A stretch of 64,000 nucleotides of DNA, taken from NCBI GenBank assembly GCA_903927345.1, contig CAIYMO010000053.1, positions 1 to 64,000 of the forward strand, given 5' to 3'. Each line of letters opens with the position of its first letter. Within the stretch, counting starts at the first letter, position 1. Positions 3,175-62,329 of this stretch are shown one piece after another. Made by a program: the position numbers and the translations under genes. Source of the stretch: an uncultured Armatimonadota bacterium. GTDB lineage: Bacteria; Armatimonadota; Fimbriimonadia; Fimbriimonadales; Fimbriimonadaceae. A model generated the notes under the pieces. That model saw nothing but the letters and a program-made list of their open reading frames with translations, did not search any database and was not told the origin of the DNA.

Positions 3175-3636
3175 TCAGAGCCCCTGAAGGCCGTTGATGA
3201 TGTTCCACTCGGCCTCTGTCACCGGCATCACCGAAAGTCGCTGACCACGAGCCAACAACAGCATCGCTTCTAGACCAGGCGTTTCGCGCATCTCGCTAAT
3301 CGGAATGATCCGATCAAATTTGCGAATCAACTGGACATTGCGGCAGATCCATCTCGACCCATCCGCTGGAGCTTTAGGATCGAAATAGTCACTGTTCGGA
3401 TCGAATTGCGTGGGGTCAGGAAAGGCGTCTCCGCATATCCGCATGGTCCCAACAATGCCGCTCGGCGTGGCGTTCGAGTGATGGAAAAAGGCAAGGTCGC
3501 CATCCGCCATAGAATCCCGAAAGAAATTCCGAACTGTATAGTTTCTGCACCCCTCCCACATAGCAGGTTCGGACGCTTTCGCCAGATCATCAATCGAATA
3601 TGTGTCAGGTTCAGACTTCATCAACCAGTAACGCAT
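3175..3636 (-). CDS. EVE domain-containing protein
   Basis: A 153-residue single-domain protein. It starts MRYWLMKSEPDTYSIDDL and contains the segments MWEGCRNYTVRNFFRDSM, DLAFFHHSNA and GIVGTMRI, which are typical of the EVE/PUA-like fold of thymocyte-nuclear-protein-1 relatives. The fold binds modified bases in nucleic acids; the exact ligand of this bacterial subgroup cannot be told from sequence. Length matches a full EVE domain. The start is supported by TAGACT ending 9 nt before the ATG (leaderless arrangement). It is convergent with the BNR gene and does not sit near restriction or toxin genes. Confidence 0.9.
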   Translation of the reverse strand: MRYWLMKSEPDTYSIDDLAKASEPAMWEGCRNYTVRNFFRDSMADGDLAFFHHSNATPSGIVGTMRICGDAFPDPTQFDPNSDYFDPKAPADGSRWICRNVQLIRKFDRIIPISEMRETPGLEAMLLLARGQRLSVMPVTEAEWNIINGLQGL

Positions 3637-3645
3637 TTGAACCTA

Positions 3646-3651
3646 AGTCTA
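3646..3651 (-). promoter_or_regulatory. Leaderless -10 element, EVE gene
   Basis: TAGACT on the minus strand ends 9 nt before the ATG at 3636, and there is no Shine-Dalgarno sequence. It matches the TANNNT pattern seen across the window. Confidence 0.5.
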
Positions 3652-3751
3652 CGCGGTTCATGAGACCTGAATCGCAGTCGAAACACCACGAGACCCAGTA
3701 AAAACAAATCGAAATTGATTCGGGGCGACGGGTATCGTATTGCTCACAGGG

Positions 3752-4474
3752 ATGAGACAGACAATTCTGGATTTAAGCGACGCCAAAGGCATTTTTGACC
3801 GCATTCTTAGCCATTGGACAACCGCTAACCTTGGTCTCACCGGCGCCGGAATCGTCCTCAAAGGCGACTTCGATAGAAACGCATTCCTGAACAAAGCTGT
3901 CGAATTCGATCACCTCTCCGAAGAGATCGAGCAGATCACCGAAACCCGAGACAAAGCCAGCGCGCAACTCACTCTCTACAAGGAGAACATGCGCTCGACT
4001 ATGCAGCGATTCGCTTACCTCGTCCGAGGCTTGTACCCAGACTCCGATTTCTCAAAGGGGCTCCCAGCGCTCCCCGATACTCGCTCCAACGAAGCCCGCT
4101 ACATGGCCCCCGTTGAGCGAACCCTCATGATTTGGCGACATGCCAACCGCGTTCGTCCACTCATCCTCCCTGATGGAACGGATGTCGAGGCGTTTGCCGC
4201 AGGAATCCAAGTGCTTCGACAGGCATTCAAGGCCCGCGACAAGGCATTCGCCCAAGAGCGCCAAATCCGCGCCGAGCGCCGCCGGCTCCACCAAGTCCTG
4301 ATCGACCGAGCCGTTCAGTATCGCCAAGTCGTTCTCGGAGTCTTCGGCGACGACCACGCCCTCGCTTTCTCCCTGCCACCACTCTGGCCAAAGCAGGATC
4401 GAAAGAAGAAGCCAACGCGCCGACTGGAAGTCATCGAAAACATAGCCGAGCCCGCCCGAGCTCTCCTCGCCTAA
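3752..4474 (+). CDS. Hypothetical coiled-coil protein
   Basis: I do not recognise a family. The product is about 240 residues with no signal peptide or membrane segment. It starts MRQTILDLSDAKGIFDRILSH; the TTG at 3740 used by the track adds four residues and is less likely. Residues about 50-85 (HLSEEIEQITETRDKASAQL) and 155-190 (KARDKAFAQERQIRAERRRL) look strongly helical and charged, so two coiled-coil arms are likely, with a basic tail near the end. GGTATCGT lies 13 nt before the ATG and could be a promoter with a very short leader. It precedes mqnC by 49 bp on the same strand, but mqnC has its own ribosome binding site. Confidence 0.7.
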   Translation: MRQTILDLSDAKGIFDRILSHWTTANLGLTGAGIVLKGDFDRNAFLNKAVEFDHLSEEIEQITETRDKASAQLTLYKENMRSTMQRFAYLVRGLYPDSDFSKGLPALPDTRSNEARYMAPVERTLMIWRHANRVRPLILPDGTDVEAFAAGIQVLRQAFKARDKAFAQERQIRAERRRLHQVLIDRAVQYRQVVLGVFGDDHALAFSLPPLWPKQDRKKKPTRRLEVIENIAEPARALLA

Positions 4475-4523
4475 ACCGCGTCATTCATCAACTTTCAAAC
4501 TTTCCTGAAACGTAGGGAGTAGA

Positions 4524-5618
4524 ATGTTAATGATGGCCGTTCTCGAAAATATCACTATTGACTCGATCTCCGAGAAGGTCTACAACAACGAGCGCATTAC
4601 CGCCGAAGAAGCGCTCTTCCTGTTCCATCACAACAATCCTCTCGAGCTTGCCGCTCTCGCAAACTTCCGACGGCAACAGCGAACCGATCCCAAAGTAGTC
4701 ACCTACATCGTTGGACGCATCCTCAACTACACCAACGTCTGTTGGGTCCGTTGTAAGTTCTGCGCCTTCTACCGAACCCCCGGTCACGAAGAGGGCTACC
4801 TCCACAGCGATGAGGACATCCTCGCCAAAGTCAAAGACACGGTTGACAAAGGCGGCGTAGAAATTCTCTTCCAAGGCGGTCTCAACCCGAAGCTCAAAAT
4901 CGAATACTTCGAGCACATCTTCTCGCTCATCAAGCGTGAGTACCCCGATGTCATCCTCCACGCGCTGAGTCCGGCCGAAATCATCTACATTGCGCACATC
5001 AGCAAGATCACTCTCGAAGAGTGTCTCACTCGCCTCAAGGCCAGCGGCCTCCACTCCATCCCTGGCGCGGGAGGTGAAATCCTTGTCGATCGCGTTCGCA
5101 AGATCATCGCGCCATACAAGGACACCACCGATGAGTGGCTTTCCTGCATGCGCGCAGCGTCGGCAATGGGCATCCGATCCACGGCATCCATGATGTTCGG
5201 GCATGTCGAAACACTTGAAGACCGTGTCGAACACCTCGGCCGAATCCGCGACCTGCAAGACGAGTGCCAACCATTCCGCGCCTTCGTCACTTGGTCATTC
5301 CAACCCGAAGACACAATGCTCCAGATTCCTGCCAAGTCAACCGCAGCGGACTACCTCCGAACCCTCGCCGTCAGCAGAATCTTCCTCGACAACTTCGACA
5401 ACATCCAGCTCTCCATCCTCACCCAGGGTCCAAAGATCGCCCAGATGGGTCTGGGCTACGGTGCCAACGACTTCGGCTCAGTGATGATCGAAGAAAACGT
5501 CGTCTCAGCGGCGGGCAACAAATTCATCTTGAATGCAACAGAGTTCGAGCGGCTAATCACAGATGCTGGGTACGAGGCGAGACGTAGGAACACGCGATAT
5601 GAGCTCCTCGAAGGCTGA
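4524..5618 (+). CDS. mqnC: Cyclic dehypoxanthinyl futalosine synthase (radical SAM)
   Basis: A 364-residue radical SAM enzyme of the futalosine route to menaquinone. It cyclises dehypoxanthine futalosine to the cyclic form. The CX3CX2C cluster motif is present as CWVRCKFCAFYR at about residues 71-82, preceded by the family-typical ILNYTNV. Further MqnC-like segments are LFQGGLNPKL, HALSPAEI, GLHSIPGAGGEIL and MMFGHVE. Length is normal for the family. GGGAG lies 6-10 nt upstream of the ATG. The other mqn genes are not in this window. The small gene downstream overlaps its 3' end, so the two are probably co-transcribed. Confidence 0.95.
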   Translation: MLMMAVLENITIDSISEKVYNNERITAEEALFLFHHNNPLELAALANFRRQQRTDPKVVTYIVGRILNYTNVCWVRCKFCAFYRTPGHEEGYLHSDEDILAKVKDTVDKGGVEILFQGGLNPKLKIEYFEHIFSLIKREYPDVILHALSPAEIIYIAHISKITLEECLTRLKASGLHSIPGAGGEILVDRVRKIIAPYKDTTDEWLSCMRAASAMGIRSTASMMFGHVETLEDRVEHLGRIRDLQDECQPFRAFVTWSFQPEDTMLQIPAKSTAADYLRTLAVSRIFLDNFDNIQLSILTQGPKIAQMGLGYGANDFGSVMIEENVVSAAGNKFILNATEFERLITDAGYEARRRNTRYELLEG

Positions 5619-5895
5619 AGTCCGGTTTTGGGCGGAAGTCAAAGAACTCCCGGAACGATATCGAATTGTTCCAATGCTCCATAGACTCGATTTCTTTTTT
5701 CCAGACGAGTTCCAGAGGGGCTACTGCATCTGGCCCAGCGCAGAGCGTAAAGGACACGAACTCGGCTTCACACCTCTCAACCCTGAACTCTATGAGCTCG
5801 AAGTGCTCCCCCGACTCTTCATCGGAGCGGAATTTCACCTCCGACAGGCAATGCGTCCCCATGCGATCTGCCGTGTAACGGAAATCTGTGTCTAG
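5599..5895 (+). CDS. Small hypothetical protein coupled to mqnC
   Basis: A 98-residue soluble protein that I do not recognise. The ORF track starts at 5563, but the ATG at 5599 (MSSSKAEVRFWAEVKELPER) is better because AGGA lies 8 nt upstream and the overlap with mqnC is then only 20 bp. It is rich in aromatic and charged residues (FFFPDEFQRGYCIWPS) and has no membrane segment. The overlap suggests translation is coupled to mqnC. A role in menaquinone synthesis would be a guess from position only. Confidence 0.6.
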   Translation: MSSSKAEVRFWAEVKELPERYRIVPMLHRLDFFFPDEFQRGYCIWPSAERKGHELGFTPLNPELYELEVLPRLFIGAEFHLRQAMRPHAICRVTEICV

Positions 5896-5954
5896 CGCGG
5901 TTCGCATCGCTTTGAATCAGTCCAACAACTTCCCCGCAACCTCACCAGAAGTGA

Positions 5955-5960
5955 TACAAT
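5955..5960 (+). promoter_or_regulatory. Extended -10 candidate for the ECF sigma gene
   Basis: TGATACAAT (extended -10 TGn plus TACAAT) lies about 45 nt before the ATG at 6006. No good -35 hexamer is seen 16-18 nt further upstream. Confidence 0.35.
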
Positions 5961-6005
5961 AGGAAGTTCTTTTGCGCCGTTCGGATGCGGTGCAACGTCT
6001 GTATC

Positions 6006-6542
6006 ATGCCCGGTGAAACGAATCACGATTCCCTCCAGGAAAAACGCTGGCTCACCGCCCTCAACGAGGGCGATACCCGCGCTTTGGGTGGAATCTATGA
6101 ACTGTACGGAGAAAGGATTTTCCGATACACGTTTCGCATGCTGGGCAATCGTTCTGATGCCGAAGACATCACAGCCGAAACATTCCTTCGCGTCCTTCGC
6201 CGATCTGGCGAACTCCGCGCAGATGGAGCGTTCCGAACGTGGCTCTTCCGCATCGCAAGGAACCTTTGTATCGACAAAATGCGGCAGCACAAACTTATGG
6301 AGCTGCCCCCAGACGCATCAATCGCGGGAACCGAAGAGAAGTCAACACTGCGCATCACAGTGCAGCAAGCTCTCTCCGAACTCCCAACCGAATACCGGGA
6401 GCCATTAGTGCTTTGTGATCTCGAAGAGATGGCAGCCCGGGAAGCAGCGGAGGTTCTGAAAATCAGTGTTCCAGCACTGAAATCTCGCCTATACAGAGGA
6501 CGTAGGGCGCTCCGTGACAAGCTAGGAGGCACACAAGAATGA
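6006..6542 (+). CDS. RNA polymerase ECF-type sigma factor
   Basis: A 178-residue sigma-70 family protein of extracytoplasmic-function size. Region 2 is visible at about residues 20-85 (IYELYGERIFRYTFRMLGN, DAEDITAETFLRVLRR, FRTWLFRIARNLCIDKMR). Region 4 is at about 120-175 (LSELPTEYREPLVLCDLEEM, ISVPALKSRLYRGRRALR). There is no region 1 or 3. I prefer the ATG at 6006 (MPGETNHDSLQEKRW) to the track's 5985, which adds seven atypical residues. The next gene begins inside its stop codon (ATGA), the classic arrangement for a sigma/anti-sigma pair. Confidence 0.92.
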   Translation: MPGETNHDSLQEKRWLTALNEGDTRALGGIYELYGERIFRYTFRMLGNRSDAEDITAETFLRVLRRSGELRADGAFRTWLFRIARNLCIDKMRQHKLMELPPDASIAGTEEKSTLRITVQQALSELPTEYREPLVLCDLEEMAAREAAEVLKISVPALKSRLYRGRRALRDKLGGTQE

Positions 6543-6823
6543 ATAACATCTACGACAAACTCGTCGATATGTACGCGGGCCAAGAGCTCGCCGAAGACCT
6601 AAACGCCGAACTCGAAGCCGTTGCTTCGACCAACCCAGCACTCAAGTCGGACATGACTTCCCTTCGCGCAACCGTCACTCGGCTGCAAAGCGACGACGAC
6701 GGAGCCTACACCGACGAAACCCACGCTCGAATCCTGATGAAACTGTACGCACGAGCGGGAGAGTTGCAGACCGGCGCACCCGAACCCATTTACTTGCAAT
6801 ACCAACTGCCAATGTCTGGCTAG
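6539..6823 (+). CDS. Small protein translationally coupled to the sigma factor (possible anti-sigma)
   Basis: A 94-residue soluble, acidic protein (MNNIYDKLVDMYAGQELAED). Its ATG overlaps the sigma stop codon by 4 bp. The N-terminal part resembles the short helical start of anti-sigma domains, but the HxxxCxxC zinc motif is absent and there is no transmembrane helix. If it controls the sigma factor it would be a cytoplasmic, zinc-free regulator. That is inferred from position. It might instead be a truncated remnant of a larger membrane anti-sigma factor. Confidence 0.7.
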   Translation: MNNIYDKLVDMYAGQELAEDLNAELEAVASTNPALKSDMTSLRATVTRLQSDDDGAYTDETHARILMKLYARAGELQTGAPEPIYLQYQLPMSG

Positions 6824-6856
6824 TAAACTGATTCCCTTAAGGCACCCCAACCTCAG

Positions 6857-7960: not shown

Positions 7961-7961
7961 G

Positions 7962-8549: not shown

Positions 8550-8767
8550 AAAGTCAAAAAGCTGGTTGACAATCAGGCTCCTGAACGACGTATAACTGAT
8601 GACCGCACGCTGCAAAACAGTTGATCCTCCAATCGAGGTTCAACCCAAATGACGAGCGCCCCATCCCGCCCTTTATTCCCTGTCCGAATTTCTCTCTTTG
8701 AACCTAGTGCGCCCATTAAACTGTGTACACACGGTAGTCAAACGACCAAAACTATAGCCATCCAAGA
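8550..8767. other. Intergenic region with weak promoter-like signals
   Basis: This 218-bp gap has no open frame that looks real. TTGACA at 8566-8571 and TATAAC at 8591-8596 are 19 bp apart, a poor spacing. A 10-bp palindrome TGTGTACACA lies at 8722-8731, 36 bp upstream of the next start, and could be an operator half-site. Confidence 0.3.
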
Positions 8768-9238
8768 ATGCAAATCCTCCCAGCCACCCCAAAAGACATC
8801 CCGATCATTCGCCGCCTGATCGAGGCGTTAGCAGATTACGAAAAGCTGCGCGAGGAATGCATCATCTCCGACAACGATCTGAACGAGTGGTTGTTCGTCA
8901 CGCCTAAAGCAAAGGCCGTCGTCTGCTGGCAGCAAGGAGAGCCCGTTGGCTTTGCGCTCTACTTCAACAACTTCAGCACATTCAAAGGCAAACCCGGTAT
9001 CTATCTTGAAGACCTCTTCGTCAAGCCTGAACACCGAGGCAAAGGCTACGGCAAAGCCCTCCTTCAATACCTAGCTAAAGAGGCAGTCGCGAACGGTTAC
9101 GCCCGGTTCGAATGGAGCGTCCTCGACTGGAACCAGCCAAGTATCGACTTCTACGAGTCGATGGGCGCCGTCCTGATGAACGAATGGAAAATCTGTCGGG
9201 TCTCCGGCGACGCGTTAATTAAACTTGCGCAAAGCTAA
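8768..9238 (+). CDS. GNAT acetyltransferase, diamine/thialysine N-acetyltransferase-like
   Basis: A 156-residue GNAT protein. The run YLEDLFVKPEHRGKGYGKAL at about residues 78-97 is the acetyl-CoA pyrophosphate loop (R/Q-x-x-G-x-G/A). LDWNQPSIDFYESMGA with the following MNEWKICR is characteristic of the spermidine/spermine and thialysine acetyltransferase branch. It probably acetylates a small polyamine-like or amino-acid substrate; the exact one cannot be fixed. TATAGC lies 9 nt before the ATG, an imperfect match to the leaderless promoter pattern. Confidence 0.88.
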   Translation: MQILPATPKDIPIIRRLIEALADYEKLREECIISDNDLNEWLFVTPKAKAVVCWQQGEPVGFALYFNNFSTFKGKPGIYLEDLFVKPEHRGKGYGKALLQYLAKEAVANGYARFEWSVLDWNQPSIDFYESMGAVLMNEWKICRVSGDALIKLAQS

Positions 9239-9282
9239 CAATCCCCTTCAGCAAATCAAAGTTCCGCCGATAACACTAGTAA

Positions 9283-10791: not shown

Positions 10792-10797
10792 TACGCT
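10792..10797 (+). promoter_or_regulatory. Leaderless -10 element, pyrF
   Basis: TGGTACGCT (TACGCT preceded by TGG) ends 9 nt before the pyrF ATG. It separates pyrF from the flagellar genes as a new transcription unit. Confidence 0.5.
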
Positions 10798-13582: not shown

Positions 13583-13588
13583 TAAATT
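13583..13588 (+). promoter_or_regulatory. Leaderless -10 element, nadC
   Basis: TGGTAAATT (TAAATT preceded by TGG) ends 10 nt before the nadC ATG. There is no Shine-Dalgarno sequence. Confidence 0.5.
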
Positions 13589-15118: not shown

Positions 15119-15193
15119 TGGAGCGGGCAACGAGATTCGAACCCGCGACCTACTCCTTGGCAAGGAGTCGCTCTACCACTGAGCTATGCCCGC
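15119..15193 (-). tRNA. tRNA-Gly (GCC)
   Basis: On the minus strand GCGGGCA begins a cloverleaf with a 7-bp acceptor stem (GCGGGCA/TGCCCGC), discriminator T and an encoded CCA. The D-arm contains AGCTCAGTGGTAGAGC, the anticodon stem-loop is ACTCC-TTGCCAA-GGAGT giving anticodon GCC, and the T-arm contains GGTTCGAATC. It sits just after birA on the opposite strand. Confidence 0.97.
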
Positions 15194-22404: not shown

Positions 22405-22410
22405 TAATCT
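22405..22410 (+). promoter_or_regulatory. Leaderless -10 element, acetyltransferase gene
   Basis: TGGTAATCT (TAATCT after TGG) ends 6 nt before the GTG at 22417, leaving no room for a Shine-Dalgarno sequence. Confidence 0.5.
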
Positions 22411-24767: not shown

Positions 24768-24773
24768 AAAGTA
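24768..24773 (-). promoter_or_regulatory. Leaderless -10 element, DUF1854 gene
   Basis: TACTTT on the minus strand ends 5 nt before the ATG at 24762, just downstream of the preceding terminator. It is weaker than most members of this class because it has no GG before it. Confidence 0.35.
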
Positions 24774-24787
24774 TGCCCCAGCCAAAG

Positions 24788-25125: not shown

Positions 25126-25320
25126 AACCCACCCCTCACTTCTCTATCAACCGCCTACACAAATCTAATTCCACACGGTGACGCAAAATATGAGATAGAA
25201 ATTGACAATTTTCTCAGCTAGGTGTACTGCCAGGTATTAACCTAGCAGGATTGCTGGGGTGCCTACTCAGGTTATTGGATACTCTTCGGCGATCTTTAGG
25301 GGTCTGGTAGCCTCTTTCAT
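25126..25320. other. Divergent intergenic region with inverted repeat
   Basis: This 195-bp gap separates the HTH gene and the methyltransferase gene. It holds TTGACA at 25203-25208, with no good -10 after 17 bp, and a 7-bp inverted repeat GCTAGGT/ACCTAGC (25217-25223 and 25240-25246). The repeat could be a binding site for the HTH protein. Confidence 0.3.
25308..25313 (+). promoter_or_regulatory. Leaderless -10 element, methyltransferase gene
   Basis: TGGTAGCCT (TAGCCT after TGG) ends 7 nt before the ATG at 25321. There is no Shine-Dalgarno sequence. Confidence 0.5.
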
Positions 25321-34089: not shown

Positions 34090-34095
34090 TATCCT
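34090..34095 (+). promoter_or_regulatory. Leaderless -10 element, gcvT
   Basis: CGGTATCCT (TATCCT after GG) ends 6 nt before the gcvT ATG. No glycine riboswitch fits in the 33-bp gap. Confidence 0.5.
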
Positions 34096-36176: not shown

Positions 36177-37256
36177 TCAAGGGATCATCTCTGGTACCAG
36201 GCCGTACTTGAACCGATATCCGGCGTCTTTTGGTTCAATCAGACCGAACCAGCCTCTGTCGTCCCAGGGCGTTGCGGACGCTCCAGATTCTAAAACGGTC
36301 TTGGTCACAACTCGGTAGTACTCGCGCACAACGCCCGAGTCTCTATCGGACTGCTGTTCCTTCCTACCGACTCCGTACTCACCGTAATTCACTCCGATTC
36401 CAAGTTTCTTGGCATGCGCCAACACTCCTCTTAAGCTCTTAACCACCGCGTCCGCGCCCGGATACTCGCTCAATTTCCCATCCTGTCCACAGAACGGCCA
36501 AGGGTCGTAGGTGTGAAGAGTCGCTATAATGTTCGCGTCCTTTCCTGCTCCCGGCAAGCCGTCTCGGGTTGGATACATTGCCGCAAGCATTGAATGGTTC
36601 CCCTGCCCGTTCATCCCAAACATAACGATTCGAGTAGCATTCTTGCCCCCCGTCGCCCGGATCGCTTTGTAACCAACTTCGTTGATGTGCCGCGTCTTCG
36701 TAAGCGCTGCTGCATCATACGGCTTCACATATCCGCCCCAACTCCCGAACACATCCTCAGGCTCATTCAGCACTTCAAAGATCAACTTTGGACTCTCGCT
36801 TGAGAACTGAGTCGCAATTCCCTTCCATAGGTTCGCGAAGATCGAATCGTGCTTGTCTCCGCTATAACTTCGCTTTAGCCAATGTTCGTGGTGCGCATTG
36901 ATGACCACATAAAGATTCTTACTGAGAGCATAGCGAACCGCCGCCTTCAGATCCATAAATCGACTAGCTTGAACATTGATGTTCCCCGAGGCGTCGGCAA
37001 GGTGCTTACCGTCGAATCCGTCCATCCAGGTCACAGGAATACGCACATGTTTGGCACCCGCGCCCGCATACAAGTCAATCACTTTGCGAACGTCCGTCAG
37101 AGCAGTCGGGTTGATACCAAGATCAAAACAGTTTCCGAGGTTAAATCCGAACCCCATCTGCTTGGAAACTTCAATGCCGTTTAGGGGTGCGGCACCTGAT
37201 GTTACAACCGGACGAAACAGCACCAAAGTTGCCACTGACAACATGCTTAAACTCAT
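36177..37256 (-). CDS. Secreted GH5-family endoglucanase/cellulase
   Basis: A 359-residue glycoside hydrolase. The N-terminus has a short signal peptide (MSLSMLSVATLVLFRPVVTSGAA). The family 5 barrel shows GFGFNLGNCFDLG, HVRIPVTWMDGF, VINAHHEHWL, the acid/base Glu in IFEVLNEPED and the nucleophile Glu in GIGVNYGEYGVG. It probably cleaves beta-1,4-glucans or related polymers outside the cell. TATGAT preceded by GG ends 5 nt before the ATG. It is divergent from the YCII gene across 79 bp. Confidence 0.92.
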   Translation of the reverse strand: MSLSMLSVATLVLFRPVVTSGAAPLNGIEVSKQMGFGFNLGNCFDLGINPTALTDVRKVIDLYAGAGAKHVRIPVTWMDGFDGKHLADASGNINVQASRFMDLKAAVRYALSKNLYVVINAHHEHWLKRSYSGDKHDSIFANLWKGIATQFSSESPKLIFEVLNEPEDVFGSWGGYVKPYDAAALTKTRHINEVGYKAIRATGGKNATRIVMFGMNGQGNHSMLAAMYPTRDGLPGAGKDANIIATLHTYDPWPFCGQDGKLSEYPGADAVVKSLRGVLAHAKKLGIGVNYGEYGVGRKEQQSDRDSGVVREYYRVVTKTVLESGASATPWDDRGWFGLIEPKDAGYRFKYGLVPEMIP

Positions 37257-37261
37257 GCCCC

Positions 37262-37267
37262 ATCATA
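37262..37267 (-). promoter_or_regulatory. Leaderless -10 element, GH5 gene
   Basis: CGGTATGAT on the minus strand (TATGAT after GG) ends 5 nt before the ATG at 37256. Confidence 0.45.
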
Positions 37268-37323: not shown

Positions 37324-37329
37324 TATTCT
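37324..37329 (+). promoter_or_regulatory. Leaderless -10 element, YCII gene
   Basis: TATTCT ends 6 nt before the GTG at 37336. Confidence 0.45.
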
Positions 37330-45794: not shown

Positions 45795-45800
45795 ATCTTA
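45795..45800 (-). promoter_or_regulatory. Leaderless -10 element, rhamnose regulator/catabolic operon
   Basis: TAAGAT on the minus strand ends 9 nt before the ATG at 45785. It would drive the seven-gene unit down to lutC. Confidence 0.5.
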
Positions 45801-50412: not shown

Positions 50413-52378
50413 CAAACATTCGTGACGGCGGATTTGCTTTCGCATTAGATCCCTTGCACACGATCTTCAACTCGTTCTTCCCTTTATTGAGAACGACTCG
50501 GCCCAAATCAACTATCTTCCAAAGCAGGTCCGGGCTATAGAAGTCAATCACCCCGACTGATCGGCCATTCACATATAGCTCCTGGATTCCGTAATCCCGA
50601 GCAAAGCATAGATTCGCCGAGAGGCTTTGTAAACCAGACCGATTCGCCTCAAATTCGAGCACGATCATTTCGCCATCTTTGGCTTCCTTCCACCAAAGTT
50701 GCTGACCGCTCGAGAGACCACCAAACGCTTGCACCTCGTTCTTACCTCCCGTCGTCGAAGTGATTCGTAGCTTCTCACCTTCGATCGCACCCTTGACTGG
50801 CGTGGGTGGCTTCGGTCCATCAATGATTTTCATCCCTTCGAGATCAAGCTGTGGGGCCGTCCACTTGCCCGGCTTCGCGTACCAAAACGCCGTCATATCA
50901 AACCGGCTCGGCACATCCTCCCAGTGCCACTGCTCGATGTCAAACCGAATCTTCTTCTTGAACGGAATGTCGTCCATCACGTGCCAGCGCACGTTTCCGA
51001 TTTGCCCGCCACAACCCGGCCCATCCGCCCGAGCCTGTCCGTGATATGGCCTTGAGAACACCTCCGGATTCGACCACGCATACCCAAAATAGTCCTCCGT
51101 CCCCGTCCCAATCCAACTCGGGAAACGCTCGCCATCCACCCAAACCTTCTCGTCCCCCTCACCCCACCAGGCCTGAGTCGGGTTCTGGACATGCATCACC
51201 GTCCCCACATACCGCCCTTCACCAAAGAAGTTGACGAGATTCATATCCCGCATTGGCCTACTCCGAGCAGTGTCGGCGGTCCACTGGGCGTGAAGAATGT
51301 AGTCAGCAGCTGGGTTAGAAGCTACCGAAGTCTGAATCGTTCCACGGAACGGGAGCTTGCCGTGGTTCACCAGCCGAAGGCTAGCCGTTCTCTGAAACGG
51401 CATAGGCAGCTTAAATCGAAGCAACCCATCTTGCACAGATGTAGCCACGGTTTCTAGCTTGGCAGGCAGGACGCCCGCCCCAAAGAAGTCCGGCAACGGC
51501 ACGCGGACAGTCTCTTGCCCGTCAAACGTTCCAACAACTTCAATCAGTTTCGTTCGGCTCTCCATACTTCGCGGGTCAGATGGTGCGAACTTCCGGTCGT
51601 CTTTCTCCAACTGGATGACCACTTCGTCAATGGCGCTCTGGTTCGATTCACTAAAGGGCACTACATGGCTTTTGCCGGCTTCAACAGTAAATCGCTGAAG
51701 TCGACCCGGTTTGCCGGCAGGTGTGGGAGGTGGAACACCGATAGGATTCCGGTTAGAATCCCGTTCGAGTAGCAGCGCAATTTGCTTAGCTTCAAGCGAG
51801 TAGACGGAGGTGTTCGCAGCGTACAACCTCGTATTCAATTGATAATAGAGTCCGTTTAATCGCTCACCAGGGGTTGACTCACTTACCGTCACCTTCAGCC
51901 TCTTTGAAAATGAGAACGGAAAATAGAGGTTCGTTCCTCTCGCGGCATTGTAAGAGAAGCGCTCGTCCCAAGGCTTCACCTTTCCTTGAAGCAAATCAGC
52001 CATCTTTGCCTCCACAAGGGGCTCCGATGATCCATCAAAATACAATCGAACAATCCCCATGGGATTCGCCGACCAGAATCGCACCATTGCCCCGGGACCT
52101 TCAAAGTCACCCATCACCCACTCAGTCCGACCCTCGTTCACCTCGCTTCGTAGATATTTGCCGTAGTCGGCGTTGGCAAACCAGCCTTCAGCGCCTGCAG
52201 ATGTTGATGCACGATCAAAGCTACTTGCCTCAATGGTCTTGTATTCATGCACCGGTCCTCCACTTGGCAGCTTGCCTGAATCCCGGGTGAGGCGATACAA
52301 ATCGGACGTTTGACTCAGCAACGTGAACGTATGAACCCAATCCCGCTGAATCGATAACACCAAGGCGATGGCAAGCAT
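50387..52378 (-). CDS. GH172-family (DUF2961) glycoside hydrolase
   Basis: A 663-residue exported protein with an N-terminal hydrophobic signal (MLAIALVLSIQRD). The DUF2961 core shows FEGPGAMVRFWSANPMGIVRLYFDG, ARGTNLYFPFSF, the conserved GTGTEDYFGYAW with the likely catalytic acid residues, and HVMDDIPFKKKIRFDIEQWHW. Characterised members of GH172 act on fructofuranosyl or D-arabinofuranosyl linkages. The C-terminal 130 residues look like a carbohydrate-binding beta-sandwich. TAAGGT preceded by GG ends 9 nt before the ATG. It is divergent from the DinB gene with only 32 bp between the starts. Confidence 0.88.
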   Translation of the reverse strand: MLAIALVLSIQRDWVHTFTLLSQTSDLYRLTRDSGKLPSGGPVHEYKTIEASSFDRASTSAGAEGWFANADYGKYLRSEVNEGRTEWVMGDFEGPGAMVRFWSANPMGIVRLYFDGSSEPLVEAKMADLLQGKVKPWDERFSYNAARGTNLYFPFSFSKRLKVTVSESTPGERLNGLYYQLNTRLYAANTSVYSLEAKQIALLLERDSNRNPIGVPPPTPAGKPGRLQRFTVEAGKSHVVPFSESNQSAIDEVVIQLEKDDRKFAPSDPRSMESRTKLIEVVGTFDGQETVRVPLPDFFGAGVLPAKLETVATSVQDGLLRFKLPMPFQRTASLRLVNHGKLPFRGTIQTSVASNPAADYILHAQWTADTARSRPMRDMNLVNFFGEGRYVGTVMHVQNPTQAWWGEGDEKVWVDGERFPSWIGTGTEDYFGYAWSNPEVFSRPYHGQARADGPGCGGQIGNVRWHVMDDIPFKKKIRFDIEQWHWEDVPSRFDMTAFWYAKPGKWTAPQLDLEGMKIIDGPKPPTPVKGAIEGEKLRITSTTGGKNEVQAFGGLSSGQQLWWKEAKDGEMIVLEFEANRSGLQSLSANLCFARDYGIQELYVNGRSVGVIDFYSPDLLWKIVDLGRVVLNKGKNELKIVCKGSNAKANPPSRMFGLDYLMIK

Positions 52379-52387
52379 AGTTTCTGC

Positions 52388-52393
52388 ACCTTA
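52388..52393 (-). promoter_or_regulatory. Leaderless -10 element, GH172 gene
   Basis: GGGTAAGGT on the minus strand (TAAGGT after GG) ends 9 nt before the ATG at 52378. It lies 5 bp from the opposing element of the DinB gene. Confidence 0.45.
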
Positions 52394-52398
52394 CCCGC

Positions 52399-52404
52399 TA
52401 TACT
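52399..52404 (+). promoter_or_regulatory. Leaderless -10 element, DinB-like gene
   Basis: TATACT ends 6 nt before the ATG at 52411. Confidence 0.5.
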
Positions 52405-52410
52405 CTCGGC

Positions 52411-52869
52411 ATGACAAAGACCGAAATCATCGAGAACCTAAAGGGTTCCTTCTCCCTGCTCGAGAAGGACCTCAATGCAATGCCCGAAGATTTGATCATC
52501 AAGTCTCTTGGCGGAAAGGCGCGGACCGCGGCCGATGTCATCTACGAAATCATCGTCGTCAACGACCACATCGGAGCGACCATCCGCGACGAAAACCCTG
52601 CTCCATGGACATTCGAAGGATGGATCACTGCCCCAACGGATTTCCAATCCAAAGAAGTCATCATCGCCGGACTCCTAGCCTCGCGTGACCGGTTCATCTC
52701 TGGAGTAGAAGCAATGTCCGAAGAGGACCTAGCGGGAACTGTAAAAACCGAACATGGAGAATCCACCCGGGCCTCACGTTGCCGGTTCGTCGCCCTCCAT
52801 AACTGGTATCACTCGGGCCAACTCAACTATATCCAAGCCCTGACTGGTGATGATGGTTGGAACTGGTAA
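52411..52869 (+). CDS. DinB-like (YfiT-type) four-helix protein
   Basis: A 152-residue soluble protein of the DinB/YfiT superfamily. It starts with the helix TKTEIIENLKGSFSLLEKDL, has a metal-ligand His in IVVNDHIGATI, and ends with FVALHNWYHSGQLNYIQALTG, where the HxxxHxGQ-type pair completes a likely three-His metal site. Members include metal-dependent thiol transferases, but the reaction here is unknown. Its stop codon abuts the stop of the convergent SRPBCC gene. Confidence 0.85.
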   Translation: MTKTEIIENLKGSFSLLEKDLNAMPEDLIIKSLGGKARTAADVIYEIIVVNDHIGATIRDENPAPWTFEGWITAPTDFQSKEVIIAGLLASRDRFISGVEAMSEEDLAGTVKTEHGESTRASRCRFVALHNWYHSGQLNYIQALTGDDGWNW

Positions 52870-53301: not shown

Positions 53302-53307
53302 AGTCTA
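53302..53307 (-). promoter_or_regulatory. Leaderless -10 element, SRPBCC gene
   Basis: CGGTAGACT on the minus strand (TAGACT after GG) ends 6 nt before the GTG at 53295. Confidence 0.5.
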
Positions 53308-53389: not shown

Positions 53390-53395
53390 TAACGT
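53390..53395 (+). promoter_or_regulatory. Leaderless -10 element, TolB-like gene
   Basis: CGGTAACGT (TAACGT after GG) ends 6 nt before the ATG at 53402, supporting that start. Confidence 0.45.
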
Positions 53396-55616: not shown

Positions 55617-55624
55617 TATTCGGG

Positions 55625-55630
55625 AGTATA
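55625..55630 (-). promoter_or_regulatory. Leaderless -10 element, GHL10 gene
   Basis: TATACT on the minus strand ends 8 nt before the ATG at 55616. Confidence 0.5.
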
Positions 55631-55792: not shown

Positions 55793-55812
55793 ATTCCGCA
55801 AAGAGGCGGAAT
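55793..55812 (+). promoter_or_regulatory. Small hairpin covering the protease ribosome binding site
   Basis: ATTCCGC and GCGGAAT pair across AAAGAG, placing the GAGG ribosome-binding sequence partly in the loop and stem. It could modulate translation of the protease. Confidence 0.3.
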
Positions 55813-55823
55813 GAGTGATTTGC

Positions 55824-57161: not shown

Positions 57162-57170
57162 CTCCAACCT

Positions 57171-57207
57171 GCCTCCGATCGTCCAACCAGACATCGGAGG
57201 CATTTTT
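57171..57207. terminator. Intrinsic terminator after the subtilisin gene
   Basis: GCCTCCGAT and ATCGGAGGC form a 9-bp stem with an inner GTC/GAC extension, followed by ATTTTTATG. It lies between convergent genes and overlaps the last bases of the NlpC/P60 gene. Confidence 0.85.
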
Positions 57208-57757: not shown

Positions 57758-57767
57758 CTCCGGAAAG

Positions 57768-57773
57768 ATTGTA
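57768..57773 (-). promoter_or_regulatory. Leaderless -10 element, NlpC/P60 gene
   Basis: TACAAT on the minus strand ends 10 nt before the ATG at 57757. Confidence 0.45.
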
Positions 57774-57796
57774 ACCGAAGTCCCCCGATTCAGCCC

Positions 57797-58837
57797 CTAC
57801 CGAGTCGAGTCGCGCTTAATGAATTCCATTGCGTACGTCTCCAGTTCGCTCGGAAGAGCAGGGTCCTGAATACGCTTGATCAGCTTCTCCCAAGCCCTCG
57901 GAATGACTTCACCAATCGGCGAACGAAGAGTCGACATGGGAACCTCAAAGTCTTCGGCATCCGGGTGAGAGCCGTAGCCCATCACTTGGCAATCTTCTGG
58001 AACCCGTTTGCCGCTCGTTGTGACCGCGCGCACCGCACCCATCGCCAGCATATCTGTCATCCCTACAAAAGCATCAGGAATCCCGTGCTCAGCAATGTGC
58101 GCCTTGACCGCCCGTGTTGAGCCTGCTCGCGACTCCTCGTCAACGACCACGATCTGAATAGGCAACCCCGCCGCTTCCATCGCTTGCACGTAACCCGCAC
58201 GGCGCCGCTCGTAAGGAAAGTCTCGCACCTGCCAATCCATCGTAATGTAAGCAATTGACCGGCTGCCGGAAGCAATCAACCGCTCCGTAGCCAGCTTCAT
58301 CGACTCAGTAACGTTCCAGGCAACCGCATCCCCGTTTGAAACAAGCTCGTAACCAATCACGACAACCGGCGTCGTCTTCCCCTCTGGCGTTTCTCTGTAA
58401 ACCTCTACCGCCGCGCCCGAGTCCATCGCAATGATTCCATCCACCGGCCACATATTGGGTGCAATCGCCTGATCGCTCAAACCAGACTCTCGGTCCAACG
58501 GCACAATCATCAACTCATGTCCGGTTCTCTTTGCTTCGCGGGAAATGAGTTGGAGCATCCTGATGTAGCTCACAATGGGACGATCAACAGGCATCCAAAT
58601 GCCGATCACGTTGGTCTTCCCACTACGAATCGCCTGGGCGTGTCGGTTCGGAGTGTAGCCAACCTTTTTAGCCGCCTCGCGAACGCGTTCCCGCGTTGCC
58701 TCCGGCAACTTGACCGTAGGGTTTCCCGTCATCACATGCGAGACCGTTTGAATCGAAACTCCCGCCTCCGCAGCGACATCGTGAAGAGTAATCCGTTTTG
58801 AGTTTTGCTTCTTAGGCGGCACTGTGTCTCTCCTCAC
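57797..58837 (-). CDS. LacI-family transcriptional regulator
   Basis: A 346-residue regulator starting at GTG 58837. The LacI helix-turn-helix and hinge are ITLHDVAAEAGVSIQTVSHVMTGNP and RERVREAAKKVGYTPNRHAQAI. The rest is a periplasmic-binding-protein-like sensor (NVIGIWMPVDRP, DAFVGMTDMLAMGAVRAV, YGSHPDAEDFEVPMSTLRSP). It is divergent from the GH127 gene with a palindromic operator between them, so it very likely controls GH127 in response to an arabinose-type sugar, and itself. Confidence 0.94.
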   Translation of the reverse strand: MRRDTVPPKKQNSKRITLHDVAAEAGVSIQTVSHVMTGNPTVKLPEATRERVREAAKKVGYTPNRHAQAIRSGKTNVIGIWMPVDRPIVSYIRMLQLISREAKRTGHELMIVPLDRESGLSDQAIAPNMWPVDGIIAMDSGAAVEVYRETPEGKTTPVVVIGYELVSNGDAVAWNVTESMKLATERLIASGSRSIAYITMDWQVRDFPYERRRAGYVQAMEAAGLPIQIVVVDEESRAGSTRAVKAHIAEHGIPDAFVGMTDMLAMGAVRAVTTSGKRVPEDCQVMGYGSHPDAEDFEVPMSTLRSPIGEVIPRAWEKLIKRIQDPALPSELETYAMEFIKRDSTR

Positions 58838-58847
58838 ATCCTCGGCT

Positions 58848-58864
58848 CATGATAATTTATCATG
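58848..58864. promoter_or_regulatory. LacI-type operator palindrome between regulator and GH127
   Basis: CATGATAA-T-TTATCATG is a 17-bp perfect palindrome. It overlaps the TATCAT -10 of the regulator gene and lies just upstream of the GH127 promoter, so one bound repressor could block both. Confidence 0.75.
58849..58854 (-). promoter_or_regulatory. -10 element of the LacI-family gene inside the operator
   Basis: TATCAT on the minus strand ends 11 nt before the GTG at 58837 and is one arm of the operator palindrome. Confidence 0.4.
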
Positions 58865-58890
58865 GCAGAACCAAGCTCTTCTTTGCTAGG

Positions 58891-58896
58891 TAATCT
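58891..58896 (+). promoter_or_regulatory. Leaderless -10 element, GH127 gene
   Basis: AGGTAATCT (TAATCT after GG) ends 9 nt before the ATG at 58906. Confidence 0.5.
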
Positions 58897-58905
58897 CTAG
58901 GGACG

Positions 58906-60771
58906 ATGCCGTCCGCAATCCCCCTCAAGCAATTTGACTCCGTTGGAGGTTTCTGGGGTGCCTACCAAACCGAGCTGGCCACCAAGGGCCTCATGCATCA
59001 GTGGCAACAAATCGTCGGGACCGGTCGGCTCCAACACTTCCTCGACGTCATTGACGGAAAATCAGGCACCCACACCGGTTACCGTTTCAACGACAGCGAT
59101 CTCTACAAGTGGCTCGAAGCTGCGGCGTACTCACAGGTCCTGAACCCCAATCCCGAGGTCAAAGCGGCTATGGAGCTGGCGATAAACGCGATCATCGGCG
59201 CTCAGGCCGAAGACGGATACCTATTCACCCTAATCCAGCTCAACAAGCCTGAGTGGAAGTGGAGAAACCTCGTTCACATGCACGAGATGTACTGCCTCGG
59301 ACACTTGATCGAAGCATGCATCGCACTCAACCAAATGGGAGACAGTCGCCTCATGCCCGTAGCGACAAAGTCTGTCGACTGCATCACAGCTACCTTTGGT
59401 CCAGGAAAGCGAGTTGGATCGTGCGGACACCCCGAAATCGAACTCGCCCTCTACCGACTCTGGCAAGAGACGGGTCAGAAGCGGTACGCCGAACTAGCAG
59501 ACTGGATGATTGATTGCCGAGGACAACGCCCCTCTCCCTTCGAGACAGAATTCGAAAATCCGACCGACAACTGCATTGTCTCGCTGGACCGTTGCTGTGA
59601 ATGGAAGGATGGCAAGTACTACGGCGAATACCTACAGGACGATAAGCCCATCCGCGACCAAGACACCATCGTTGGGCACTCAGTGCGTGCAGCCTATCTC
59701 TACGCCGCAGCTCAGCTCTCGGCGGGGCGCCGCAAGGACAAGCCCCTCCAAGACGCTCTCGACCGAATCTGGACCAACTTAACCGAGGCAAGAATGTACG
59801 TCACCGGCGGAATTGGCTCGACCGGAGACGGCGAAGGATTCACCGCCGACTACGATCTCCCAAACCTCAACGCCTACGCAGAAACATGCGCCGGAATCGC
59901 CTTGGCAATGTGGGCAAGACGATCATTCGAAGTTAACCCCTCAACCGACCCTCTCGACGTTCTCGAACGAGCTCTGTTCAACGGAATCCTCAGCGGAGTT
60001 TCTCGAGACACCACCCGCTATTTCTACGACAACCCCCTCGAAAGCCGGGCGAACACTGAACGTCAGCCTTGGTTCGGTTGTGCCTGTTGCCCTCCCAACA
60101 TCGCGAGACTCCTGGCCAGCATCACGGACTACGCCGTTCAAGCCGACGATAAAACGCTCTACCTCGCCTTCCCAATCGAGTGTTCGTTCACGCTGACCAA
60201 CGGTCTCAAGGTCAAAATCAAATCGCAGTATCCCAACCGCGGCAAAGCGGAGATCACCATCACTGCAAAGCAACCTACGCGGTTCCGCCTCGCTCTCAGA
60301 ATCCCTGATTGGGCCGAAGAAGTCACCACAACCCTGCCCGGCGCTCAACCAGCCGAATACGAAGAAGGCTTCGCCGTCTTTGACGAGGTATGGGAGGGAG
60401 ACCGAACGCTTACCCTCGAATTCGAGATGGAGCCCCGACTCATCTCAGCTCATCCAAAGGTGCTTGATAACCTCGGCAGGGTCGCGGTCCAGTACGGGCC
60501 AACCATTTACTGCGCCGAAAGCTCCTCTGAAGCAAACGCGCCTCAACGGGCAACTCTGGAGCTTAACGAAGACATTCAGCTCGGAGCGCAAAAATCGCCC
60601 GGTGGAGCGCCTACCTTACAGGTCAACGCGATTCGGCAAAACGACGCAGACGGACCTCTCTACGAGTACGAACAAGAGGCAAATTATTCCCAGGAAACCC
60701 TCACCCTCATCCCATACCGAGAGTGGAACGCGTCCGGAAAGAGCTACATGCAAGTTTGGCTCAGAGCCTAA
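58906..60771 (+). CDS. GH127-family beta-L-arabinofuranosidase-like enzyme
   Basis: A 621-residue protein of the DUF1680/GH127 family. It has an (alpha/alpha)6 barrel in residues about 1-410 and beta-domains after. Conserved segments are FNDSDLYKWLEAAAYS, GAQAEDGYLFTL, HMHEMYCLGHLIEACIAL, ITGGIGSTGDGEGF-like TGGIGSTGDGEGFTADY, and PWFGCACCPPNIARLLAS. In characterised GH127 enzymes the CCPPN cysteine is the nucleophile and neighbouring Cys and Glu bind zinc. There is no signal peptide, so it probably acts on imported oligosaccharides. It is regulated by the adjacent LacI-type protein. Confidence 0.92.
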   Translation: MPSAIPLKQFDSVGGFWGAYQTELATKGLMHQWQQIVGTGRLQHFLDVIDGKSGTHTGYRFNDSDLYKWLEAAAYSQVLNPNPEVKAAMELAINAIIGAQAEDGYLFTLIQLNKPEWKWRNLVHMHEMYCLGHLIEACIALNQMGDSRLMPVATKSVDCITATFGPGKRVGSCGHPEIELALYRLWQETGQKRYAELADWMIDCRGQRPSPFETEFENPTDNCIVSLDRCCEWKDGKYYGEYLQDDKPIRDQDTIVGHSVRAAYLYAAAQLSAGRRKDKPLQDALDRIWTNLTEARMYVTGGIGSTGDGEGFTADYDLPNLNAYAETCAGIALAMWARRSFEVNPSTDPLDVLERALFNGILSGVSRDTTRYFYDNPLESRANTERQPWFGCACCPPNIARLLASITDYAVQADDKTLYLAFPIECSFTLTNGLKVKIKSQYPNRGKAEITITAKQPTRFRLALRIPDWAEEVTTTLPGAQPAEYEEGFAVFDEVWEGDRTLTLEFEMEPRLISAHPKVLDNLGRVAVQYGPTIYCAESSSEANAPQRATLELNEDIQLGAQKSPGGAPTLQVNAIRQNDADGPLYEYEQEANYSQETLTLIPYREWNASGKSYMQVWLRA

Positions 60772-61298
60772 CCAGGCATCAGATTCGGCGAATATCGGGT
60801 ACTTGGGGTGTGACAAAGATCGGCGAGACGGGCCATTAACACCCCAACTGCATCCCCAAACTCCGCCGTAGACACTGGTCCATTCTGACCAGTCACCAGC
60901 GGCCCAAGCGGCATCACCAGTCCACGGATAACCAAGCCGCTGATCAGAGTTGAGTTGCCATCTGCACGGAACCGCGCGGCGTCAAACGAACTCGGGCGGG
61001 GCGAACGCTTAAAACTCGCCGCACTCGCCTTAACCAGCAGATCAAACTCTGCGAGAATCTCGTTCTTTGTGATTGGAGTCGCATCGGCAACCAGCTTGAC
61101 TGGAGAGCCACCGGCGAGTTTCAAACCCTTCTGAAGGACACTCCACGCCTTGTCCAAAACCTTTCTTGCTTCCGCCTTCGTCACTGGGGCTGTCGACGCC
61201 TTAACGACCTTTGTCGTTGGCTTCTTGAACTCTCCACCGTCCTGAGCTGGGCTCACCGAAGCAACCAACAAAACGAGAAACAAGAAAAGGAACTTCAT
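60768..61298 (-). CDS. Exported hypothetical protein in the murA-mreB operon
   Basis: A 176-residue protein with a clear signal peptide (MKFLFLFLVLLVASVSPAQDGG). The mature part begins Lys/Thr-rich, followed by helical segments (TKAEARKVLDKAWSVLQKGLKL, TKNEILAEFDLLVKASAASF). Its end (GPLVTGQNGPVSTAEFGDAVGVLMARL) resembles the secondary-structure order of S-layer-homology-like repeats, though too weakly for a call. It starts within the mreB stop (ATGA overlap), which suggests a role in wall or shape; that is inference. Its stop overlaps the GH127 stop. Confidence 0.7.
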   Translation of the reverse strand: MKFLFLFLVLLVASVSPAQDGGEFKKPTTKVVKASTAPVTKAEARKVLDKAWSVLQKGLKLAGGSPVKLVADATPITKNEILAEFDLLVKASAASFKRSPRPSSFDAARFRADGNSTLISGLVIRGLVMPLGPLVTGQNGPVSTAEFGDAVGVLMARLADLCHTPSTRYSPNLMPG

Positions 61299-62314
61299 AG
61301 TGTTGTCAGGGCTCCGCTGTTGCGTATGTTTTCCAAGTCCTCAATCGCCATTCCGGTCCCAGTTGCAACACACGTTAGTGCATTCTCGGCAACTCGGACA
61401 TCAACCTGAGTGACATCCTGAAGATATCGATCCAGCCCGCGCAAAAGTGCTCCACCACCGGTAAGAGTAATCCCTCGCTCGATGACGTCGCTCGCCAGTT
61501 CAGGCGGCGTCTCCTCAAGGACTTGACACAGCTTTTCAGCGATCTGACGGACTGGCTCGTTCAGCGCCTCACGAATCTCGATAGAAGAGATCTCAATGGT
61601 CTTTGGCAGGCCATGAATCATATCTCGCCCTCGAACTTCCATCCGAGCTTCCTGAGTAGCCGGATAAGCCGTTCCGAGTTTGATCTTAATGTCCTCGGCC
61701 GTCATGTCTCCGATCATCAAGTTGTACGCACCACGCACATGCCGGATAATCGCCTCGTCCATCTTGTTTCCAGCAACGCGAATACTCGACGACAAGACGA
61801 TGCCACCCAGTGACAGAATCGCGATATCCGTCGTTCCTCCGCCGATATCGACAACCATATTGCCACCCGGAGCATTGATCGGAAGTCCAGCTCCAAGTGC
61901 AGCGACAAACGGTTCTTCAACCGTCATTGCAATTCCTGCACCCGCCTCTCGAGCCGCTTTGATAACTGCTCGGCGCTCGACGTTCGTCACCGCGGCTGGA
62001 ACACAGATCAAGGTCGTCGGAGCAAATCGGAAAGGCAGTCTGGTGCCACATGTTTTTTGAATAACATGCTCCAACATCTTTAACGTAATGGTGTAATCCG
62101 CGATGACCCCGTCCTTCATCGGACGCACAGCGCGGATGTTCGTCGGAGTTCGCCCGAGCATCTCACGCGCATCGTTTCCTACAGCGAGAATCTTGCCGGT
62201 GGTAATGCTCTCGGCGACAACAGTAGGCTCGGAAAGCACAATCCCTTTTCCACGCCGGTAGACCAAAAGGTTCGCGGTTCCAAGGTCAATGCCTAACTGG
62301 GGAACAAATCTCAA
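61295..62314 (-). CDS. mreB: Rod shape-determining protein MreB
   Basis: A 339-residue bacterial actin that directs sidewall peptidoglycan synthesis. It starts at TTG 62314 (MRFVPQLGIDLGTANLLVYRRGKGIVLSEP). Nucleotide-binding segments are the phosphate-1 loop GIDLGTANL, NMVVDIGGGTTDIAILSLGG and the adenosine motif GITLTGGGALLRGLDRYL. The conserved VRPMKDGVIADY is present. Length is normal. mreC and mreD are absent; murA lies 20 bp upstream and a small exported protein follows. TAACCT preceded by GG ends 9 nt before the TTG. Confidence 0.96.
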   Translation of the reverse strand: MRFVPQLGIDLGTANLLVYRRGKGIVLSEPTVVAESITTGKILAVGNDAREMLGRTPTNIRAVRPMKDGVIADYTITLKMLEHVIQKTCGTRLPFRFAPTTLICVPAAVTNVERRAVIKAAREAGAGIAMTVEEPFVAALGAGLPINAPGGNMVVDIGGGTTDIAILSLGGIVLSSSIRVAGNKMDEAIIRHVRGAYNLMIGDMTAEDIKIKLGTAYPATQEARMEVRGRDMIHGLPKTIEISSIEIREALNEPVRQIAEKLCQVLEETPPELASDVIERGITLTGGGALLRGLDRYLQDVTQVDVRVAENALTCVATGTGMAIEDLENIRNSGALTTL

Positions 62315-62323
62315 CTTAACCTA

Positions 62324-62329
62324 AGGTTA
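62324..62329 (-). promoter_or_regulatory. Leaderless -10 element, mreB
   Basis: AGGTAACCT on the minus strand (TAACCT after GG) ends 9 nt before the TTG at 62314. It overlaps the end of murA, so mreB may have its own promoter as well as read-through from murA. Confidence 0.45.

What the first reader, a model, noticed from the sequence alone, without database searches (positions are those of the whole stretch)
3636..62329. Widespread leaderless promoter class: (GG)TANNNT ending 5-11 nt before the start codon
Seen directly: 22 genes that head transcription units have TANNNT ending 5-11 nt before ATG, GTG or TTG (starts at 3636, 10807, 13599, 22417, 23251, 23336, 24762, 25321, 33064, 34102, 37256, 37336, 45785, 52378, 52411, 53295, 53402, 55616, 57757, 58837, 58906, 62314). 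I count about 43 unit heads in the window. With A and T near 23% each, about 8-9% would match by chance, i.e. about 4. In 12 of the 22 the hexamer is preceded by GG (TGG in four), which was not part of the selection; chance is about 7%. No -35 box recurs. Established knowledge: TANNNT close to the start marks leaderless transcripts in Deinococcus-Thermus and Actinobacteria. Inference: this lineage uses leaderless mRNAs heavily, with a GG-extended -10 element. Some starts were chosen with the motif in mind (23251, 24762), so the count is slightly biased.
Basis: partly seen in the sequence, partly recalled or inferred. Interest (0 to 1): 0.78.

Follow-up and report, generated by a model that had tools for sequence, protein, structure and literature searches.

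The report
Leaderless genes in a Fimbriimonas bacterium
In this little-studied bacterium (phylum Armatimonadota), between a fifth and a third of genes seem to be read from a promoter placed so close to the start codon that the messenger RNA has no, or almost no, untranslated leader; the mechanism is known from other phyla, but I found no report of it in this one.

Summary
The window belongs to a Fimbriimonas-like genome (Armatimonadota). All 22 listed TANNNT sites exist, 12 with GG. In 889 genes from 1.02 Mb of this genome, with starts called from codon usage alone, TANNNT ends exactly 6 nt before the start in 10.6%, against 0.4% before internal in-frame ATGs; the excess covers 6-11 nt and is gone by 12. 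Whole-genome counts of GTANAMT + 6 nt + RTG are 95, against 17 at 15 nt. The motif excludes Shine-Dalgarno sites, favours unit heads, has no -35 partner and prefers G at -14 and -13. TTG starts nearly vanish at 6 nt (1 of 94) but not at 8-11 nt, so I read 6-7 nt as leaderless and 8-11 nt as probable 2-5 nt leaders. Of 35 other families in the phylum, f13 and f20 share it clearly; most do not. New here: 31% of divergent gene pairs have start codons under 60 bp apart, often with back-to-back -10 boxes. Corrections: GG is weaker genome-wide (21%), and two of the 22 genes look like Shine-Dalgarno starts. No RNA data exist here. Known mechanism; no held paper describes it in this phylum.

The parts
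3646..3651 (-). -10 box, 9 nt before ATG 3636 (EVE-domain protein); leaderless or 3-nt leader
   Evidence: model posterior 0.96; Pfam EVE begins at residue 2
10792..10797 (+). TGG + TACGCT, 9 nt before ATG 10807 (orotidine 5'-phosphate decarboxylase)
   Evidence: (0.95)
13583..13588 (+). TGG + TAAATT, 10 nt before ATG 13599 (quinolinate phosphoribosyltransferase)
   Evidence: (0.88)
   Evidence: model posterior 0.88; Pfam
22405..22410 (+). TGG + TAATCT, 6 nt before GTG 22417 (GNAT acetyltransferase)
   Evidence: 0.99; not kept in relative L022
23258..23263 (-). TATCAT, 6 nt before GTG 23251
   Evidence: 0.93; kept at 6 nt in L022
23324..23329 (+). TAGACT, 6 nt before ATG 23336 (Tmemb_14 protein)
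24770..24775 (-).
   Evidence: model prefers 7 nt (0.99); L022 has CATAAT in the same place
25308..25313 (+). TGG + TAGCCT, 7 nt before ATG 25321 (methyltransferase)
   Evidence: 0.98; box and 13 bp upstream identical in L022
33048..33053 (+). CGG + TATCTT, 10 nt before ATG 33064
   Evidence: 0.73
34090..34095 (+). CGG + TATCCT, 6 nt before ATG 34102 (glycine cleavage T protein)
   Evidence: (0.99)
37262..37267 (-). TATGAT, 5 nt before ATG 37256 (cellulase family); weak, probably a Shine-Dalgarno start at 37244
   Evidence: SD 0.73
37324..37329 (+). TATTCT, 6 nt before GTG 37336
   Evidence: 0.87
45795..45800 (-). TAAGAT, 9 nt before ATG 45785 (DeoR-family regulator)
   Evidence: (0.84)
52388..52393 (-). 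TAAGGT, 9 nt before ATG 52378; half of a 32-bp divergent pair
   Evidence: (0.82)
52399..52404 (+). TATACT, 6 nt before ATG 52411 (DinB family); 5 bp from the opposite -10 box
   Evidence: (1.00)
53302..53307 (-). CGG + TAGACT, 6 nt before GTG 53295 (polyketide cyclase-like)
   Evidence: (1.00)
53390..53395 (+). CGG + TAACGT, 6 nt before ATG 53402 (PD40 propeller)
   Evidence: (0.95)
55625..55630 (-). TATACT, 8 nt before ATG 55616 (GHL10 glycosyl hydrolase-like)
   Evidence: (0.96)
57768..57773 (-). TACAAT, 10 nt before ATG 57757 (NlpC/P60)
   Evidence: (0.95)
58849..58854 (-). TATCAT, 11 nt before GTG 58837 (LacI-family regulator); weak, probably a Shine-Dalgarno start at 58822
   Evidence: (SD 0.97)
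58891..58896 (+). AGG + TAATCT, 9 nt before ATG 58906 (GH127)
   Evidence: (0.94)
62324..62329 (-). AGG + TAACCT, 9 nt before TTG 62314 (MreB); 3-nt leader AAG expected
   Evidence: (0.98)

Best explanation
Shown: many upstream regions hold a -10-only promoter class, roughly T(-17), G(-14), G(-13), then TA-A-A-C/A-T, without a -35 box, placed so that the hexamer ends 6-7 nt (tail to 11 nt) before the start codon. Inferred: the housekeeping sigma factor starts transcription about 7 nt after the hexamer. At 6-7 nt spacing the first transcribed base is then the A or G of ATG/GTG, giving a leaderless mRNA that ribosomes bind through its 5' start codon with initiator tRNA. At 8-11 nt spacing the mRNA carries about 2-5 nt, still too short for a Shine-Dalgarno site. 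Other genes, mainly inside operons, use Shine-Dalgarno sites. Because such a start needs only about 12-15 bp, divergent genes can be packed with start codons 20-60 bp apart and -10 boxes back to back; RNA polymerase should then occupy only one direction at a time (inference).
For: Peak at 6 nt: 10.6% of 889 motif-blind starts against 0.4% of 5403 internal ATGs; whole genome 95 against 17, falling 95, 51, 32, 35, 30 over 6-10 nt. Start codons at 6 nt: 1 TTG in 94 against 10.5% elsewhere, p = 0.001, and GTG doubled. Shine-Dalgarno 4-mers 3.2% at 6 nt against 31% in genes without the box. Divergent heads 48% and close co-directional genes 24% in the class. Same peak in other genera of the family and in f13 and f20. 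Annotated T. thermophilus starts, a known leaderless user, give the box in 15 of 54 genes at 6-7 nt. The box is kept at several orthologous starts. Anti-SD intact in 16S. Divergent gaps below 60 bp: 44 of 144 here against 1 of 56 in SD-type relatives, and the motif rate rises as the gap shrinks (22% to 48%, p = 0.0002).
Against: No RNA or proteome data. The mixture model assigns 14.5% of shuffled decoys to the class (with no TA...T motif), so 36% is an upper figure and the raw excess of about 18% of genes a safer one. The ortholog test is small (52 pairs; a control spacing also reached p = 0.04). Genes at 8-11 nt need not be leaderless. Very short divergent gaps may include wrong starts, and other f1 genomes show fewer (4 of 61).
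Confidence: 0.85

Rival explanations
1. The 8-11 nt group is also fully leaderless: RNA polymerase reaches further downstream and starts on the A of ATG.
For: In M. tuberculosis the -10 motif is centred 7-12 bp upstream of TSSs (PMC3898074), which allows some spread; the box quality is the same at all spacings.
Against: TTG starts occur at the background rate at 8-11 nt (10 of 106) but almost never at 6 nt. Annotated Thermus starts show none at 8-10 nt, though only 54 genes were read.
Confidence: 0.3
2. The motif is not a promoter but a composition effect or an A/U-rich ribosome-binding (S1-type) signal before start codons.
For: Upstream regions are somewhat AT-richer, and S1-type signals are discussed for non-SD genes (PMC5397173).
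Against: A sharp 6-nt peak with fixed T, A, T positions plus G(-14)/G(-13) is not general AT-richness; shuffles of the same upstreams give 10.3% against 28.3%; enrichment at divergent heads and TTG loss at one spacing fit transcription starts.
Confidence: 0.04
3. The boxes are ordinary -10 elements of standard leadered promoters whose true start codons lie further downstream.
For: Two of 22 window genes (37256, 58837) fit better with a start a few codons downstream preceded by a Shine-Dalgarno site.
Against: Starts were called from codon usage without the motif; Pfam domains begin within the first residues at several of these starts (EVE residue 2, OMP decarboxylase residue 4, MreB residue 6, polyketide cyclase residue 6); genes with the box lack a Shine-Dalgarno site.
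Confidence: 0.06

Closest known systems
Leaderless genes with TANNNT next to the ORF in Deinococcota (D. radiodurans, T. thermophilus; PMC12340547, PMC3160421)
   Same: TANNNT about 6-7 nt before the start, no -35 needed, coexists with a Shine-Dalgarno class
   Different: Here the box extends to 11 nt, G is preferred at -14/-13, and the share of genes is lower than the 30-46% reported there; I tested only 54 Thermus genes for the comparison
Leaderless transcripts with TANNNT promoters in Mycobacterium tuberculosis (PMC3898074)
   Same: TANNNT -10, no conserved -35
   Different: There the preceding triplet is SRN, with CGN in 45% and TGN in 7%; here G-14 and G-13 are each about 50% and the middle bases are biased to A-A-C/A
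Bidirectional promoters with a symmetrical -10 element (PMC12825309, PMC10268837)
   Same: Two divergent core promoters close enough that one polymerase should exclude the other
   Different: Here most pairs have separate back-to-back hexamers with predicted TSSs about 30-60 bp apart, not 7-25 bp around one shared hexamer, and both outputs start protein-coding genes

Membership tests
Leaderless (TA-led) genes | -10-like hexamer at a fixed spacing of about 6-7 nt before the start codon, far above chance | tested here: met
   10.6% and 4.4% at 6 and 7 nt against about 0.5%; whole genome 95 against 17
Leaderless (TA-led) genes | No Shine-Dalgarno site in the same genes | tested here: met
   3.2% against 31%
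Leaderless (TA-led) genes | Transcript begins at, or within a few nt of, the start codon | not testable with these tools
   No RNA data; indirect support from the loss of TTG starts at 6 nt
Leaderless (TA-led) genes | Translation works without a leader | not testable with these tools
   No reporter or proteome data
Classical extended -10 promoter (TGn) | T at -15 and G at -14 | tested here: not met
   G-14 about 45-55% but TG only 7-8%, equal to background
Standard sigma70 -35/-10 promoter | TTGACA-like element 15-19 bp upstream of the -10 | tested here: not met
   No enrichment against control spacings; 6 sites against 8.9 in shuffles over 20 kb
Bidirectional promoter (shared symmetrical -10) | Opposite-strand starts 7-25 bp apart sharing one -10 element | tested here: not met
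   Only 3 of 45 double-leaderless divergent pairs have overlapping hexamers; the others are 4 bp or more apart

The most novel reading that the evidence does not exclude
Fimbriimonadaceae have a start-site design of their own: -10-only promoters give both leaderless and 2-5 nt-leader mRNAs, and this has let divergent genes collapse to 20-60 bp start-to-start distances, so that a large share of divergent genes are coupled through mutually exclusive polymerase binding.
Probability: 0.35. Interest if true: 0.65.

Novelty: new member of a known kind. Interest (0 to 1): 0.48.

Why it matters
Leaderless initiation is described for Deinococcota, Actinomycetota, archaea and scattered others. No held paper describes it for Armatimonadota, although one noted that Fimbriimonadia have few Shine-Dalgarno sites (25%, PMC10783764). 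The trait is patchy within one phylum (strong in families f1, f13 and f20, near background in most others), so gain or loss of leaderless expression can be studied between related genomes. In practice, gene finders tuned to Shine-Dalgarno sites will misplace starts in these genomes, and the very short divergent promoters predict direct competition between neighbouring genes.

Tried and rejected
(1) A -35 box: no enrichment at 15-19 bp spacing, no excess of sigma70-type promoters. (2) A special sigma factor: the housekeeping RpoD scores below the curated cut-off in f1, f2 and genus g30 of f13, but f20 scores above it and still has the trait, and sigma A keeps the usual contact residues, so I dropped a causal link. 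(3) GG as one joint element: G-13 and G-14 are independent. (4) A separate 9-nt class: 9 nt exceeds 8 nt in pooled counts (p = 0.0002), but some hits are second codons after a start at 6 nt, so it stays unexplained. (5) Near-cognate starts (ATT, CTG and others) at 6 nt: no clear excess. (6) My codon-usage gene caller failed on T. thermophilus plasmid pTT27 at 70% GC, so annotated starts were used for that control.

Full report
Where the window comes from. Topoisomerase I from the window is 92% identical to that of a 'Fimbriimonas sp.' MAG and 65-68% to other Fimbriimonadales or Armatimonadetes MAGs. The genome is 3.1 Mb in 57 contigs, about 54% GC. The 16S 3' end reads GGATCACCTCCTTA on the RNA strand, so the anti-Shine-Dalgarno is intact.

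Checking the list. All 22 sites are present with spacings of 5-11 nt, and 12 have GG before the hexamer. With starts chosen only from codon usage, 14 of 36 window heads match at 5-11 nt against 4.1 in shuffles.

Genome-scale test. In 1.02 Mb I called 902 genes from codon usage; 889 had enough upstream sequence. TANNNT ends exactly 6 nt before the start in 10.6% of genes, 4.4% at 7 nt, then 3.0, 4.5, 2.8 and 2.7% at 8-11 nt, and near background from 12 nt on; before internal in-frame ATGs the figure at 6 nt is 0.4%. A gene-free count over the whole genome, GTANAMT then 6 nt then RTG, gives 95 against 17 at 15 nt. A mixture model that also chooses starts puts 36% of genes in this class, 48% of divergent heads and 24% of close co-directional genes; shuffled decoys give 14.5%, without a TA...T motif. 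The raw excess (28.3% minus 10.3%) is a safer figure of about 18% of genes.

What the element looks like. The logo is T(-17) 40%, G(-14) about 45-54%, G(-13) about 52%, then TA, A-rich, A-rich, C/A, T. T at -15 is not enriched, so this is not the classical TGn element. There is no -35 partner. The housekeeping sigma factor keeps the residues that correspond to E. coli H455 and E458 and the region 4.2 helix (the roles of these residues are from general knowledge).

Leaderless or short leader. At 6 nt the start codons are 72 ATG, 21 GTG and 1 TTG; in genes without the box TTG is 10.5% (p = 0.001), and at 8-11 nt it is 9.4%. A uridine would be poor both as a first transcribed base and as a 5'-terminal start codon, so this fits transcription beginning on the start codon at 6 nt and upstream of it at 8-11 nt. 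Shine-Dalgarno 4-mers occur in 3.2% (6 nt), 5.1% (7 nt), 6.6% (8-11 nt) and 31% (rest). Annotated T. thermophilus pTT27 starts show the box in 8 and 7 of 54 genes at 6 and 7 nt and none at 8-10 nt.

Relatives. Orthologous starts in family members keep the box in several cases, for example 23251 and 25321 in L022, while 22417 is not kept; this test is small. Across 151 genomes of the phylum the 6-nt to 15-nt ratio is 5.6 here, 4.6 in the rest of the genus, 3.4 in 20 genomes of other genera of family f1, 4.5 in four f13 genomes and 2.5 in f20, and near 1 in most other families. Genus g15 within f1 looks like a loss (ratios 1.1 and 1.4). Gene-based sampling agrees: f13 genome G012 has 14.8% at 6 nt with strong GG, and several families rich in Shine-Dalgarno sites show little or none.

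Divergent pairs. In this genome 44 of 144 divergent pairs have start codons under 60 bp apart, against 1 of 56 in SD-type Armatimonadota (p = 1e-6) and 4 of 61 in other f1 genomes. Motif frequency at 6-11 nt rises from 22% at gaps of 120 bp or more to 48% below 60 bp, using motif-blind starts. Examples are window 52378/52411 (32 bp) and L048 15939/15971 (31 bp). The shortest gaps, under about 15 bp, probably include wrong starts. The other f1 genomes were sampled at 100 kb each, so their lower rate may partly reflect weaker gene calls. The two boxes of most pairs are separate, which differs from published bidirectional promoters that share one symmetrical box (PMC10268837, PMC12825309). Competition between the two directions is an inference.

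Literature. Zheng 2011 lists phyla with leaderless genes, and Armatimonadetes is not among them (PMC3160421). The 2025 study of -10 boxes next to ORFs centres on Deinococcota and also scanned 'common phyla' that the text does not name (PMC12340547). A survey reports 25% Shine-Dalgarno use in Fimbriimonadia (PMC10783764). GeneMarkS-2, which surveyed leaderless use in 5,007 genomes (as cited in PMC9581028), is not held, so its species list could not be checked. I therefore claim only that no held paper describes the trait in this phylum.

Verdict. It is a known mechanism in a phylum where I found no description of it, with a broader spacing and unusual divergent packing that deserve RNA mapping.

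Noticed in passing
window 52378-52411; L048 15939-15971; own-genome sample: Many divergent gene pairs have start codons only 20-60 bp apart with back-to-back -10 boxes (44 of 144 pairs below 60 bp).
   Followed up: partly
own genome, families f1, f13 and f20: The box is slightly commoner at 9 nt than at 8 nt before the start (pooled p = 0.0002), which would mean a 3-nt, in-frame leader; unexplained.
   Followed up: partly
window about 25294-25317 (upstream of 25321): The stretch TTCTTTAGGGGTCTGGTAGCCTCTTT is identical in relative L022 while the sequence further upstream differs, so an operator or other control site may overlap this promoter.
   Followed up: no
L182 (G000:C55:98164-98844): A second RpoD-like sigma factor has R and A where sigma70 has Q437 and T440, and Y at H455, so it may read a different -10 box.
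   Followed up: no
window 9011-9084: ARAGORN calls a tRNA-Gly(gcc) here, antisense inside ORF 8768-9238, which Rfam does not report at its gathering score; a second tRNA-Gly(gcc) at 15119-15193 is found by both.
   Followed up: no
G143 and G144 (genus g15 of family f1): Two small (1.5 Mb) genomes of the family have nearly lost the motif peak (66 against 48 and 75 against 69), a possible loss of leaderless expression.
   Followed up: no
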